From contig NZ_JADIKF010000033.1 in NCBI RefSeq assembly GCF_016904945.1, positions 1 to 64,000 on the forward strand: a DNA stretch of 64,000 nucleotides. Direction: 5' to 3'. Positions 1 to 54,083 of this stretch are shown piece after piece. Numbering within the stretch: position 1 is the first letter of the stretch; each line of letters begins with the position of its first letter. The DNA is from Dyella mobilis (GTDB taxonomy: Bacteria; Pseudomonadota; Gammaproteobacteria; Xanthomonadales; Rhodanobacteraceae). The notes under the pieces are model-generated. The model ran no database searches, was not told the DNA's origin, and was given only the letters and a program-made list of their open reading frames with translations. The position numbers and the translations under genes are program-made.

Positions 1-119
1 GTCGGTTGAATCTTCGTCCTCGCGCCACCCTGGACTACCACTGTCCCGCTGAAATGTTCATGCGCGCATTAGGACGTCATGATCTGGCGGATCAAATTGA
101 TGACGCACTTCTAGATTGA
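1..119 (+). CDS. IS30-family transposase, C-terminal end (5' part lies outside the window)
   Basis: The third frame is open from the left edge to a TGA at 117-119. It reads RLNLRPRATLDYHCPAEMFM and onwards to ...QIDDALLD. The pattern 'LN-x-RPR-x-TL-x-Y-x-x-P-x-E-x-F' is the typical C-terminus of IS30-family DDE transposases, just after the last catalytic acidic residue. Only about 38 residues are visible, so I cannot tell whether the element is intact. No clean terminal inverted repeat could be made out directly downstream. The gene sits in a short stretch of apparently decayed DNA abutting a tRNA-Leu gene. Confidence 0.6.
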   Translation, partial: RLNLRPRATLDYHCPAEMFMRALGRHDLADQIDDALLD

Positions 120-22400: not shown

Positions 22401-22695
22401 CGTCTGTTCCTTGAGATTGGAAAGGCCGGCCCTCGTCGACCGGCCGGAAGCGATGCATATCGCCGGCTGCTACTGCAGATTTCCATGACTACAGCGTGTG
22501 CTCGATGCCCCTGCGGATACCCGTTCCCCAGCCAGCGATCCCATCGATGACATCGCTTTCCCTGTCCGGATGCGCGGTCGCTATCTCAGCAGGGACCAGG
22601 CTAAGTGCCTGTGAAAATTCGAGGGCTTGGGATTTCGGGGTATATCCATGCGCCGGCCGCTTGCGCGTGAGCCCGCCACGTGATGTAGTCGAGTC
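22401..22695. other. Divergent control region of the porin gene and asnB leader
   Basis: About 295 bp with no convincing protein. Minus-strand frames here are short and lack start signals. Promoters for the porin (leftward) and for the asnB leader transcript (rightward) should lie here. I could not fix -35/-10 boxes by eye. Confidence 0.4.
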
Positions 22696-22824
22696 ATGAA
22701 CGCTTTCGCCGCCAGCCATCTTTCCTTCATCGCCGCCCACGTGGCCGATGTCGGTTTGGCTGCCTTCGGCCTGAATAACAACGCCAATAACAATACCCGT
22801 CACTACGGGTGGGCCGGCGTGTAG
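22696..22824 (+). CDS. Candidate asparagine-rich leader peptide of asnB (42 aa)
   Basis: The ATG at 22696 opens a 42-codon frame ending TAG at 22822-22824. The peptide begins MNAFAASHLSFIAA and contains GLNNNANNNTRHYGWAGV at its end. Asn codons AAT AAC AAC (GCC) AAT AAC AAT fill 22774-22794. Only one other Asn (codon 2) occurs. The run of six is far beyond chance and lies exactly where a control codon run is expected, just before the hairpins that precede asnB. The ribosome-binding site is weak (CGAG), and a start at the internal GTG (22741) is possible. Role: a ribosome stalling here for lack of Asn-tRNA would switch the RNA fold and let transcription into asnB proceed. Confidence 0.75.
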   Translation: MNAFAASHLSFIAAHVADVGLAAFGLNNNANNNTRHYGWAGV

Positions 22825-22881
22825 ACGAAAGCAACAAACACACACGCAAAAAGGGCCCGCCAAGTGCGGGCCCTTTTTTTT
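22795..22881 (+). promoter_or_regulatory. Transcription attenuator of asnB (competing hairpins plus terminator)
   Basis: Four segments can be drawn. Segment 1 is ACCCGT (22795-22800), right after the Asn codons. Segment 2 is ACGGGTGGGCC (22805-22815). Segment 3 is GGCCCGCC (22854-22861). Segment 4 is GCGGGCCC (22866-22873). 1:2 forms a perfect 6-bp stem with loop CACT. 2:3 pairs GGTGGGCC with GGCCCGCC (seven Watson-Crick pairs and one G-U). 3:4 is the terminator stem GGGCCCGC-CAAGT-GCGGGCCC followed by eight T. The 2:3 pairing excludes 3:4. asnB starts 57 bp beyond the T-run. This is the standard order of a trp/his-type attenuator. Confidence 0.8.
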
Positions 22882-22937
22882 CGCCTCATCACTGCTCGAC
22901 CTGCCAACCGACCACCGACAAATCAAAGGAACCCGCC

Positions 22938-24614
22938 ATGTGTGCCATCTTTGGAATCTTCGACTTGCAGCCAGGCGACGACCTGGCTGCCTTGCGCCAA
23001 CTTGCCCTGGAGCTGTCCCAGCGCCAGCGGCATCGCGGACCGGATTGGAGCGGGGTGTTCGTGGATGCCGGCGTGATCCTGGTGCACGAGCGCCTGGCCA
23101 TCGTCGATCCTGCCAGCGGTGCGCAGCCGTTGCGCTCGCGCAGTGGCCATCTTGCACTGGCCGTGAATGGCGAGATCTACAACCATCGCGAGCTGCGTGC
23201 GAAGAGCCGCTACGACTTCACCACCGGCTCCGATTGCGAAGTCATCAACGCACTCTATGAAGAACACGGCGCGGATTTTCTCGGCAAGCTCAACGGCATC
23301 TTCGCCTTTGCGCTGTGGGATGGCGAAGCGCAGCGCTACCTGATTGCACGCGACCCGATCGGCGTGTGCCCGTTGTATTGGGGGCACGACGCGCAGGGCA
23401 GGGTATGCGTTGCTTCGGAAATGAAAGCCCTGGTCGGTGTCTGTGCGGACGTTGCGCCGTTTCCGCCAGGGCACGTCTATGACAGCGCCAGCGGTGAGTT
23501 GTTGTCTTATTACAGCCGCCCGTGGCGCGATTACGCCGTCACGAAAGGACAAGCACCGGCAGCAGGCCAATTACGCGAAGCGTTTGAGCAGGCCGTGCAT
23601 CGCCAGTTGATGACCGACGTGCCATACGGCGTGCTGCTGTCCGGCGGCCTGGATTCCTCGCTGGTGGCTGCCTGCGCTGCACGCTTCGCCCGTGAACGCA
23701 TCGAAGACGAAGATCGCAGCGAGGCGTGGTGGCCGCGCTTGCATTCGTTCGCCATCGGCCTGGAAGGTTCGCCTGACCTGGCGGCGGCAAAAGTGGTGGC
23801 CGATGCGCTGGGCACCGTACATCACGGCTTCATTTACACCTTCTGGGAAGGGCTCGATGCGCTACCGGAGGTGATCCGCCACATCGAAACCTACGACGTC
23901 ACCACCATCCGTGCCTCCACGCCGATGTATCTGCTGGCGCGGCGGATCAAGGCGATGGGTGTGAAGATGGTGCTTTCCGGCGAAGGCTCGGACGAAATCT
24001 TCGGCGGCTACCTGTATTTCCACAAGGCGCCGTCCGCCGAGGCATTTCACGAGGAGACCGTGCGCAAACTCGATGCCTTGCACAGCTACGATTGCCTGCG
24101 CGCCAACAAATCGATGATGGCCTGGGGAGTGGAGGCACGCGTGCCCTTCCTCGATCTGGAATTCATGGAGGTGGCCATGGGTATGGACGCCGCGCACAAG
24201 ATGGCGGGCAAGGGGCGTATCGAAAAGGCCGTGTTGCGCGAAGCGTTCGACGGCGCCTTGCCCGAGTCGATCCTGTGGCGCCAGAAGGAACAGTTCAGCG
24301 ACGGCGTGGGCTACGGCTGGATCGACGGATTGAAGGCACACGCCGAACAGGCCGTCAGCGACCGCGAATTTGCCGCGGCCGCTGCGCGTTATCCCTTCAA
24401 CACGCCGGCGACCAAGGAGGCGTACCTGTATCGCCGTATTTTCGAAAAGCATTTTCCGGGCGAGGCCTGTGCGGCAACCGTGCCGGGCGGCAAGTCGATT
24501 GCCTGCTCTTCGCCCGCGGCGCTCGCGTGGGATCCGTCGTTTGCCGCCATGGCCGATCCGTCCGGCCGCGCCATTCGCGACGTGCACGCTCATGCGCTGG
24601 ATACCACGGCGTAA
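22938..24614 (+). CDS. asnB: Asparagine synthetase B (glutamine-hydrolysing)
   Basis: 558 residues beginning MCAIFGIF, with the catalytic N-terminal Cys of the class II glutamine amidotransferase domain (about 1-200; 'NGEIYNHRELR', 'GSDCEVI'). The synthetase domain has the PP-loop LLSGGLDSSLVAA near residue 235 and 'MVLSGEGSDEIFGGYLYF' near 350. It makes asparagine from aspartate, glutamine and ATP. AAAGGA seven to eight bases before the ATG at 22938 supports that start over the longer open frame. It is preceded by the Asn leader and terminator described above. A 12-bp hairpin follows the stop. Confidence 0.96.
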   Translation: MCAIFGIFDLQPGDDLAALRQLALELSQRQRHRGPDWSGVFVDAGVILVHERLAIVDPASGAQPLRSRSGHLALAVNGEIYNHRELRAKSRYDFTTGSDCEVINALYEEHGADFLGKLNGIFAFALWDGEAQRYLIARDPIGVCPLYWGHDAQGRVCVASEMKALVGVCADVAPFPPGHVYDSASGELLSYYSRPWRDYAVTKGQAPAAGQLREAFEQAVHRQLMTDVPYGVLLSGGLDSSLVAACAARFARERIEDEDRSEAWWPRLHSFAIGLEGSPDLAAAKVVADALGTVHHGFIYTFWEGLDALPEVIRHIETYDVTTIRASTPMYLLARRIKAMGVKMVLSGEGSDEIFGGYLYFHKAPSAEAFHEETVRKLDALHSYDCLRANKSMMAWGVEARVPFLDLEFMEVAMGMDAAHKMAGKGRIEKAVLREAFDGALPESILWRQKEQFSDGVGYGWIDGLKAHAEQAVSDREFAAAAARYPFNTPATKEAYLYRRIFEKHFPGEACAATVPGGKSIACSSPAALAWDPSFAAMADPSGRAIRDVHAHALDTTA

Positions 24615-24755: not shown

Positions 24756-25881
24756 ATGATCGAAACCAATCCGATCCTTGCGCAGATCGCGGACCTCAAG
24801 GGCCGCATCGAGTCGCTTAGGGGGTATCTTTGACTACCCCATCAAGCGTGAGCGCCTGGAAGAAGTAAGCCGCGAACTGGAAAGCCCCACCGTCTGGGAC
24901 GATCCGCCGCGCGCGCAGGAACTGGGCCGCGAACGCGCCCGCCTCGATACCATCGTCAGCGGCATCGACCGCATCACCGCCGGCCTCGACGATGCCGGCG
25001 AGCTGCTGGAAATGGCGGCCGCCGATGGCGACGAGGACACCGTGCAATCGGTGGTCAACGACGTCACCAAGATCGACGGCGAGGTCAGCAAGCTGGAATT
25101 CCAGCGCATGTTCTCCGGCAAGATGGACTCGGCCAACGCCTTCGTCGACATCCAGGCCGGTGCCGGCGGTACCGAAGCGCAAGACTGGGCAGAAATACTG
25201 TTGCGCATGTACCTGCGCTGGACCGAATCGCGCGGCTGGAAGGTCGAGTTGATGGAAGCCAGCGCGGGCGACGTGGCCGGCATCAAGTCCGCCACCTTCC
25301 GCGTGGAAGGCGATTACGCCTATGGCTGGCTGAAAACCGAAATCGGCGTGCACCGCCTGGTGCGCAAGAGCCCGTTCGATTCCGACAATCGCCGCCACAC
25401 CAGTTTCACCTCGGTATTCGTTTCGCCGGAAGTCGATGACGACATCGATATCGAGATCAACCCGGCCGACCTGAAGACCGACGTGTACCGTTCGTCCGGC
25501 GCCGGCGGCCAGCACGTCAACAAGACCGAATCGGCGGTGCGTATCACCCACGTGCCCAGCGGCGTGGTGGTGGCCTGCCAGACCGAACGCAGCCAGCATG
25601 CCAACCGCGATCGCGCGATGAAGATGCTGAAAGCCAAGCTGTACGAGCTGGAGATTCAAAAGCGCAATGCCGAGAAGGACGCGCTGGAAGCCTCCAAGTC
25701 GGACATCGGCTGGGGCAGCCAGATCCGTAACTACGTGCTCGACCAGAGCCGCATCAAGGATCTGCGCACCGGCATCGAACGCACCGATACCCAGAAAGTG
25801 CTGGACGGCGATCTGGACGAATTCGTCGAAGCCAGCCTGAAATCCGGCCTGGACGCCGGCGCCAAGCGCCTGGATGCTTAA
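24756..25881 (+). CDS. prfB: Peptide chain release factor 2, with programmed +1 frameshift
   Basis: Translation starts at ATG 24756 ([20 protein letters not shown]) and reaches CTT TGA at 24828-24833. Directly upstream is the Shine-Dalgarno-like AGGGGG, and the next base after the stop is C: the classical RF2 autoregulatory site. Skipping one base (24831) continues [11 protein letters not shown] through to 25881. The coding sequence is therefore 24756..24830 joined to 24832..25881, 374 residues. The GGQ loop ([15 protein letters not shown]) and the RF2 codon-recognition SPF tripeptide ([16 protein letters not shown]) are present. RF2 terminates at UGA and UAA, and low RF2 favours the frameshift. 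lysS lies about 0.5 kb downstream, as in many bacteria. Confidence 0.97.
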
Positions 25882-25905: not shown

Positions 25906-26250
25906 ATGAAAAGCAAGAATATCTGCACCATCCTGCTGGCGTGTTCCGTGTTCGCGTTGTCCAGCTATCCGGCCATGGCCGACCAGACCGTCAAGCAGGA
26001 TGCGAAAGATGCCGGTCACGCCGTCGGCAATGGCGCGCGCGAAGTAGGGCACGGCACGGCGCACGTCGCCAAGGCAATCGGGCATGGCACGGCCAATGCC
26101 GCCAGGACCGTCGGGCATGGCACCGCGCACGCCGCCAAAGCGGTTGGGCATGGCGCTGCGCAAGCAGGGCACGGCATTGCGCACGGTACGCGCGAAGGCT
26201 GGGATGCCACTAAAAGCGCGGTCAAGGGCGTGTTCCACAAAGGTGATTGA
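25906..26250 (+). CDS. Exported protein with tandem 11-residue Gly-His-Gly repeats
   Basis: 114 residues. There is a signal peptide ([25 protein letters not shown]). The mature part is built of tandem 11-mers starting at residues 48, 59, 70 and 81: [44 protein letters not shown], with a weaker unit before at 37. In the DNA this is a 33-bp tandem repeat. Eleven-residue periodicity with Ala/Lys/Gly is a feature of LEA-like and apolipoprotein-like amphipathic helices. The histidines could also bind metal. It lies 24 bp after prfB and 105 bp before lysS, so it may be cotranscribed. No family recognised. Confidence 0.75.

Positions 26251-53731: not shown

Positions 53732-54083
<352 letters not shown>

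What the first reader, a model, noticed from the sequence alone, without database searches (positions are those of the whole stretch)
22696..22937. Asparagine leader peptide and attenuator in front of asnB
Seen: a 42-codon ORF with Asn codons AAT AAC AAC GCC AAT AAC AAT (22774-22794). Directly after them a pause hairpin ACCCGT/ACGGGT forms. Segment GGTGGGCC can pair with GGCCCGCC, or the latter can form the terminator GGGCCCGC-CAAGT-GCGGGCCC plus eight T (ends 22881). asnB begins 57 bp later. Known: trp, his, leu, thr, ilv and phe operons use this layout, with control codons for the product amino acid. Inference: low Asn-tRNA stalls the ribosome over segment 1, frees segment 2 to pair with 3, and lets RNA polymerase reach asnB. 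With enough Asn the ribosome reaches the stop codon, masks segment 2, and the terminator forms. I know of no characterised asparagine attenuator of this class. The product of the downstream gene matches the control codon exactly.
Basis: partly seen in the sequence, partly recalled or inferred. Interest (0 to 1): 0.9.

Follow-up and report, generated by a model that had tools for sequence, protein, structure and literature searches.

The report
Leaderless asparagine attenuator before asnB
In front of the asparagine-making gene asnB, Dyella and many related bacteria carry a short reading frame packed with asparagine codons and a hairpin with a T-run that looks like a transcription stop, an arrangement that likely switches the gene on when asparagine runs short and that is predicted to start translation at the very first base of the message.

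Summary
Of 176 distinct asnB upstream regions, 131 have at least 4 Asn in 12 codons: 84 of 90 in the window's family, 42 of 44 in a second, 4 of 4 in L028 and f3, and 1 of 38 in more distant asnB loci. A terminator follows in 126 of 131. The antiterminator arms differ between families but stay complementary. The genome has asnS but no asnA or gatB match, so Asn-tRNA should report asnB output. New here: promoter-like boxes end 6-7 nt before the leader ATG and a Shine-Dalgarno is lacking, so the leader is predicted to be leaderless; leuA leaders of the family have the same layout. No earlier Asn leader turned up in the open-access papers searched. Verdict: a new, Asn-specific and predicted leaderless variant of ribosome-mediated attenuation.

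The parts
22661..22689 (+). predicted promoter: -35 TTGCGC 22661-22666, 17 nt, -10 TGTAGT 22684-22689
   Evidence: TTGnnn-16..18-nnnnnT placed 5-9 nt before an in-frame leader start in 113 of 131 leaders; not listed by the generic consensus scan
22696..22824 (+). leader ORF MNAFAASHLSFIAAHVADVGLAAFGLNNNANNNTRHYGWAGV*, predicted to be translated from a leaderless 5' end
   Evidence: conservation
22774..22794 (+). control codons AAT AAC AAC GCC AAT AAC AAT (six Asn in seven codons)
22795..22810 (+). candidate 1:2 (pause) hairpin ACCCGT-CACT-ACGGGT
   Evidence: covariation in A1; not above shuffles over 126 relatives
22808..22822 (+). antiterminator 5' side: GGTGGGCC 22808-22815 (outer helix) and GCGTGT 22817-22822 (inner helix)
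22842..22861 (+). antiterminator 3' side: ACACGC 22842-22847 (inner) and GGCCCGCC 22854-22861 (outer, overlaps the terminator 5' arm)
22848..22881 (+). predicted intrinsic terminator AAAAAGGGCCCGC-CAAGT-GCGGGCCCTTTTT, T-run to 22881
   Evidence: conserved
22938..24614 (+). asnB, glutamine-hydrolysing asparagine synthetase B (the gene predicted to be controlled), with SD-like AAAGGA upstream

Best explanation
The leader of asnB holds an Asn-codon-rich short ORF followed by two mutually exclusive pairings predicted for the same RNA arm, and it likely works as a ribosome-mediated transcription attenuator that would read the charging of Asn-tRNA. Shown by sequence and comparison: the Asn run, the two complementary partners of the arm, the hairpin with T-run, the conserved promoter-like boxes, and that the genome has asnS but no asnA or gatB match. 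Inferred: transcription starts at or within a base or two of the leader A22696 and a 70S ribosome starts on this leaderless AUG. When Asn-tRNA is short the ribosome stalls in 22774-22794; even at the last Asn codon it leaves 22805 onward uncovered (assumed footprint). Segment 22808-22822 then pairs with 22842-22861, the terminator arm is occupied, and RNA polymerase reads on into asnB. When Asn-tRNA is plentiful the ribosome runs to the stop codon at 22822, covers segment 22808-22822, the terminator 22848-22881 forms and transcription ends before asnB.
For: Asn clusters: 60 of 176 regions have 7 or more Asn in 12 codons, against at most 15 for any other amino acid (Arg) and 0 for Asn on the antisense strand. 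At 4 or more: 84 of 90 f1, 42 of 44 f2, 1 of 1 (L028), 3 of 3 f3, 1 of 38 others. Terminator in 126 of 131. Antiterminator: A1 (22 sequences) 96.2% of cells paired against 28-56% for slid versions, one inner pair CG:12 UA:9 UG:1; A2 (19 sequences) 86.1% against 22-41%, four pairs with changes on both sides; swapping arms between families costs about 6-7 kcal/mol on average. Ribosome-position model: arm held 0.83 on Asn codons, 0.25 at stop, same direction in 126 of 126; in the window the switch lies 2-3 codons after the last Asn. AAT/AAC vary while Asn is kept. Promoter-like boxes at the start in 113 of 131; SD-like 4-mer in 4 of 113 leaders against 108 of 113 asnB starts. Signal logic: asnS yes, asnA and gatB no.
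Against: No transcript, 5' end, read-through or translation data. Pair-count shuffles do not remove relatedness, and not every measure beats them: in A1 'pairs changed on both sides' is reached by 87 of 500 and 'further pair types' by 478 of 500 shuffles, in A2 the latter by 443 of 500. Of 126 own segment-arm pairings 44 are not in the best 5% of dinucleotide shuffles. Luteibacter antiterminators are weaker and mismatched. The 1:2 hairpin is not above shuffles. Promoter and start were chosen together by score; 18 of 131 leaders do not fit. The folding model is thermodynamic and its ribosome footprint is assumed.
Confidence: 0.92

Rival explanations
1. An attenuator that senses translation in general (or leaderless initiation) rather than asparagine: any slow or absent ribosome keeps asnB on, and the Asn run only tunes it.
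For: The model predicts antitermination also with no ribosome on the leader (96 of 109) and, in the window, with stalls anywhere upstream of the Asn run.
Against: The Asn run is kept in 130 of 138 close orthologs with synonymous variation; in the window it ends two codons before the point from which a stalled ribosome would cover segment 2.
Confidence: 0.05
2. The ORF encodes a functional small Asn-rich peptide, or the RNA is a stand-alone sRNA ending at the terminator, with asnB transcribed from its own promoter.
For: Termination would release an RNA of about 186 nt; Rfam asX2 (a Xanthomonas sRNA) gives a sub-threshold match on the other strand (25.9 bits, gathering 70).
Against: Outside the Asn run and the C-terminal codons that double as segment 2 the peptides listed differ in length and sequence; the generic scan shows no promoter between terminator and asnB, though it also misses the boxes proposed here; the antiterminator arms would have no reason to change together.
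Confidence: 0.02
3. A T-box or other ligand-binding riboswitch controls asnB and the ORF is incidental.
For: T-boxes control asn genes in Gram-positive bacteria (recalled).
Against: No T-box or riboswitch family at gathering score in the window nor at E up to 1 in 22600-22960; Asn run conserved as amino acid.
Confidence: 0.01

Closest known systems
Ribosome-mediated leader-peptide attenuators of Proteobacteria (trp, his, leu, thr, ilv, phe)
   Same: Control codons for the product amino acid, alternative antiterminator and terminator, structural gene directly downstream; mechanism as described in PMC9413887 (passages seen).
   Different: Asn codons and asnB as target; promoter-like boxes ending 6-7 nt before the leader ATG and hardly any Shine-Dalgarno; predicted antitermination without a ribosome, whereas the untranslated trp leader terminates (recalled).
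Branched-chain leader in front of leuA in the same family (27 of 28 leuA loci examined)
   Same: Present in the window's genome too; leader before leuA with a promoter-like pair ending 6-8 nt before ATG in 26 of 27.
   Different: Leu/Ile/Val codons, TTGACA-type -35 box, unrelated peptide; 5 of 27 have an SD-like 4-mer.
Leaderless polycysteine ORFs of mycobacteria (Canestrari et al. 2020; seen only as described and cited in PMC9031893, passages)
   Same: Leaderless short ORF with a run of one amino acid's codons acting as attenuator.
   Different: Described there as regulating translation of downstream genes; here a predicted intrinsic terminator; mycobacteria, not Gammaproteobacteria.
T-box control of asn genes in Firmicutes (recalled)
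   Same: Would sense Asn-tRNA charging.
   Different: tRNA binds the RNA directly, no leader ORF; no T-box match here.

Membership tests
ribosome-mediated transcription attenuators (leader-peptide type) | short ORF with clustered codons for the amino acid made by the downstream gene | tested here: met
ribosome-mediated transcription attenuators (leader-peptide type) | intrinsic terminator between ORF and gene | tested here: met
   by sequence only: 126 of 131; termination itself not measured
ribosome-mediated transcription attenuators (leader-peptide type) | mutually exclusive antiterminator conserved by compensatory change | tested here: met
   with the limits told there
ribosome-mediated transcription attenuators (leader-peptide type) | control codons placed so that a stalled ribosome leaves, and a ribosome at stop covers, the antiterminator segment | tested here: met
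   model, 126 of 126
ribosome-mediated transcription attenuators (leader-peptide type) | conserved 1:2 (pause) hairpin | tested here: inconclusive
   covariation in A1, not above shuffles in 126 relatives
ribosome-mediated transcription attenuators (leader-peptide type) | read-through rises when the amino acid or its charged tRNA is short | not testable with these tools
   no expression data
Rfam Thr_leader, Leu_leader, Phe_leader, Trp_leader | score at or above gathering threshold | tested here: not met
   25.7/55, 22.5/50, 22.1/55, 20.9/41 bits
leaderless mRNA | promoter ends 5-9 nt before the start codon and no Shine-Dalgarno | tested here: met
   by sequence: 113 of 131, SD-like in 4 of 113
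leaderless mRNA | mapped 5' end at the start codon | not testable with these tools
   no transcript data
T-box riboswitch | Rfam T-box match | tested here: not met

The most novel reading that the evidence does not exclude
In this order of Gammaproteobacteria attenuation is built on leaderless mRNAs: the promoter fires at the A of the leader AUG, a 70S ribosome loads on the bare 5' end, and the untranslated leader antiterminates by default, so that only a ribosome that gets through the Asn (or Leu/Ile/Val) codons can switch the gene off. Amino-acid supply and leaderless initiation are thereby read by one RNA, the reverse of the trp default.
Probability: 0.55. Interest if true: 0.82.

Novelty: new variant of a known kind. 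Interest (0 to 1): 0.74.

Why it matters
It would add asparagine to the short list (recalled) of amino acids sensed by leader-peptide attenuation, in a genome where asnB looks like the only de novo Asn route. It would also join two fields, classical attenuation and leaderless translation. Two unrelated leaders (asnB, leuA) with the same promoter-to-AUG spacing make the question 'can attenuation start on a leaderless mRNA?' directly testable by mapping one 5' end and changing a few codons.

Tried and rejected
The generic promoter/terminator scan listed neither element; conservation was used instead. Rfam at gathering score gave no leader family. The pause hairpin as a general feature was tested and not supported by shuffles. 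A Gammaproteobacteria-wide search for this asnB at E 1e-150 found it in 4 of 187 genomes: the window's own, two of the same order, and G429; so a wider comparison was not possible. Of 20 further upstream regions, the three f2 ones (L223-L225) have 6-8 Asn, 15 others (f8, f10, G429) at most 3, and in two (L210, L211) no start was located; two of the 15 were short. A quick scan with ad hoc thresholds on three loci of the own genome found a leader before leuA but none by hisG or ilvB.

Papers: ten searches, four of which named asparagine or asnB, two attenuators in Xanthomonads and four leaderless mRNAs. Searches gave no paper; one search gave 36, of which I saw 20 as a listing and opened none; one search gave two, of which PMC5009743 (passages) speaks of Asn codons only for tRNA modification, and the other was not opened. 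PMC2965389 has no 'asparagin' or 'asnB' in its main text. The survey of Proteobacteria attenuators by Vitreschak et al. 2004 could not be opened (identifier from memory) and is recalled as not listing Asn. Subscription papers are not covered.

Rows dropped: 3 loci without the asnB start (L013, L027, L036) of 202 records, and 23 duplicates of 199 upstream regions. Family labels are the G-handle codes; for named loci (L001-L021 to f1, L022 to f2) I assigned them myself, some by identical contigs. A1 holds 22 of 32 and A2 19 of 24 non-redundant sequences; I left out L015, L016, L095, L108, L111, L121, L122, L127, L158, L165 and L164, L171, L177, L180, L184 by hand; the first ten are mostly the more divergent ones, which favours A1. 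For leuA 28 of 31 genomes were examined; three with weak matches only were left out.

Full report
What is there. On the + strand the sequence shows TTGCGC 22661-22666, 17 nt, TGTAGT 22684-22689, six nt, then ATG 22696 of a 42-codon ORF ending at TAG 22824, with AAT AAC AAC GCC AAT AAC AAT at 22774-22794. It is followed by GGTGGGCC-G-GCGTGT (22808-22822), ACACGC (22842-22847), the hairpin AAAAAGGGCCCGC-CAAGT-GCGGGCCCTTTTT with T to 22881, and ATG 22938 of asnB. asnB scores 864 bits against NF006949 (cut-off 499) and aligns over nearly its whole length with E. coli AsnB 1ct9.

Is it chance? The pattern AAYAAYAAYNNNAAYAAY occurs once in the 5.18 Mb genome, here; the backward-read control also gives one match, and this run contains such a match itself. 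In 16 genomes of the genus every one has 1-5 matches, partly in other places. asnB orthologs came (37 named loci; 117 genomes of the family; 250 genomes of the order), with upstream stretches: 202 records with the window, 199 with a located asnB start, 176 distinct. Of these, 131 have at least 4 Asn in a 12-codon sense window at 20-400 nt before asnB. Sixty have 7 or more; no other amino acid has more than 15 regions at that level (Arg 15, Ala 14), and Asn on the antisense strand has none.

By lineage: family f1, with the window and the named Dyella, Rhodanobacter and Luteibacter loci, 84 of 90; family f2 (to which I assign Thermomonas L022) 42 of 44; L028 1 of 1; f3 3 of 3. The rest together 1 of 38: more distant asnB of f1 genera g13/g25 0 of 12, f10 0 of 10, named outsiders 0 of 12, f2 genera g64/g82 0 of 2, f8 1 of 2. 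The eight close orthologs under the threshold still carry a leader, seven with three Asn and L084 with six Asn farther upstream; seven of the eight have the terminator motif. The feature goes with one clade of asnB.

Selection on the amino acid. In 26 leaders with NNNANNN the Asn codons vary between AAT and AAC (nine nucleotide versions) while Asn stays. Among Asn codons of the last 25 leader codons 399 of 821 are AAT, against 39 of 280 in the asnB genes held; the reason is unknown.

Two alternative pairings. 126 of 131 have a terminator. In most f1 genomes the segment is GGYGGGCC against GGCCCGCC, in many f2 genomes GATGCGGGT against ACCCGCATC, and in two f2 genomes of different genera GCAGG against CCTGC. 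Own pairing averages -20.0 (f1) and -22.2 (f2) kcal/mol; f1 segments with f2 arms give -13.8 and f2 segments with f1 arms -15.6; swaps inside a family cost 0 to 2. Own is better than the mean cross-family arm in 79 of 80 and 38 of 43. RNAalifold on A1 brought up an inner helix (columns 52-55 with 84-87) that is not part of the terminator, with one pair CG in 12, UA in 9, UG in 1. The whole antiterminator keeps 96.2% of cells paired in A1 (slid versions 28-56%) and 86.1% in A2 (22-41%). The terminator in A2 keeps 96.5%, with eight pairs changed on both sides. Against: some of the five measures do not beat the shuffles, only 82 of 126 segments pair better than 95% of dinucleotide shuffles, and Luteibacter pairs less well.

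Ribosome positions. I folded the RNA downstream of a ribosome (leading edge 13 nt after the first base of the A-site codon, an assumption) up to the terminator loop. The terminator 5' arm is held by upstream RNA with mean probability 0.83 with the ribosome on Asn codons and 0.25 at the stop codon; stalled exceeds stop in 126 of 126. In the window it is 0.87 at the last Asn, 0.62 at CGT two codons on and 0.09 at the next codon. With no ribosome the arm is held in 96 of 109, unlike trp, where an untranslated leader terminates (recalled).

Leaderless start. 113 of 131 leaders have TTGnnn-16..18-nnnnnT ending 5-9 nt before an in-frame start (6 or 7 nt in 107); the other two frames show no favoured spacing. 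An SD-like 4-mer lies before 4 of 113 leader starts and 108 of 113 asnB starts; 21 leaders have no other in-frame start. As an independent check, 27 of 28 leuA loci of the family have a Leu/Ile/Val-rich leader, with a promoter-like pair ending 6-8 nt before ATG in 26 of 27; 5 of 27 have an SD-like 4-mer. 5' ends are not mapped, so this step is predicted.

Logic of the signal. The genome has asnS over cut-off and no match to asnA or gatB, for which 2 and 12 of 14 control genomes ring. Asn-tRNA should thus come from AsnRS and free Asn, and asnB looks like the only de novo source; four weaker asnB-like matches in the genome were not examined.

Comparison with what is known. It works like the leader-peptide attenuators of amino-acid operons and meets the defining features tested, except that the 1:2 hairpin stayed inconclusive; the response itself was not testable. 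It does not reach the gathering score of any Rfam leader family. Leaderless short ORFs as attenuators are known for cysteine in mycobacteria (as cited in PMC9031893; the original was not held). No Asn leader-peptide attenuator turned up in the searches listed under Tried and rejected.

Verdict.

Noticed in passing
L226:1191-1328 (window's own genome, upstream of leuA): Leader MPQRNSHRHMTCAIRPPSDIGMLQLGGLLLISLVLVLLITNGGAG with a terminator-like hairpin behind it and TTGACA-18-TACGGT-7 nt-ATG: a second predicted leaderless attenuator; similar leader in 27 of 28 leuA loci of the family, spacing 6-8 in 26 of 27.
   Followed up: partly
   Followed up: no
22809-22937: An in-frame GTG at 22809 opens asnB upstream through the terminator (601-aa ORF); gene callers could start asnB too early. 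The Met-Cys start at 22938 fits the glutaminase Cys (recalled).
   Followed up: no
leader Asn codons of 126 relatives: AAT makes up 399 of 821 Asn codons in the leaders but 39 of 280 in the asnB genes held; a possible effect on decoding speed was not tested.
   Followed up: partly
24756-24830: ATG 24756 and AGGGGGTATCTT 24819-24830 before the long ORF to 25881, which looks like release factor 2 (prfB) with its usual programmed frameshift site (name and motif recalled).
   Followed up: no
25906-26250: Small secreted-looking protein with repeated HGTA/HGAA-type units, between the prfB-like ORF and a lysS-like ORF (names recalled).
   Followed up: no
53732-54083 (-): tmRNA gene (Rfam RF00023, 198.7 bits).
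   Followed up: no
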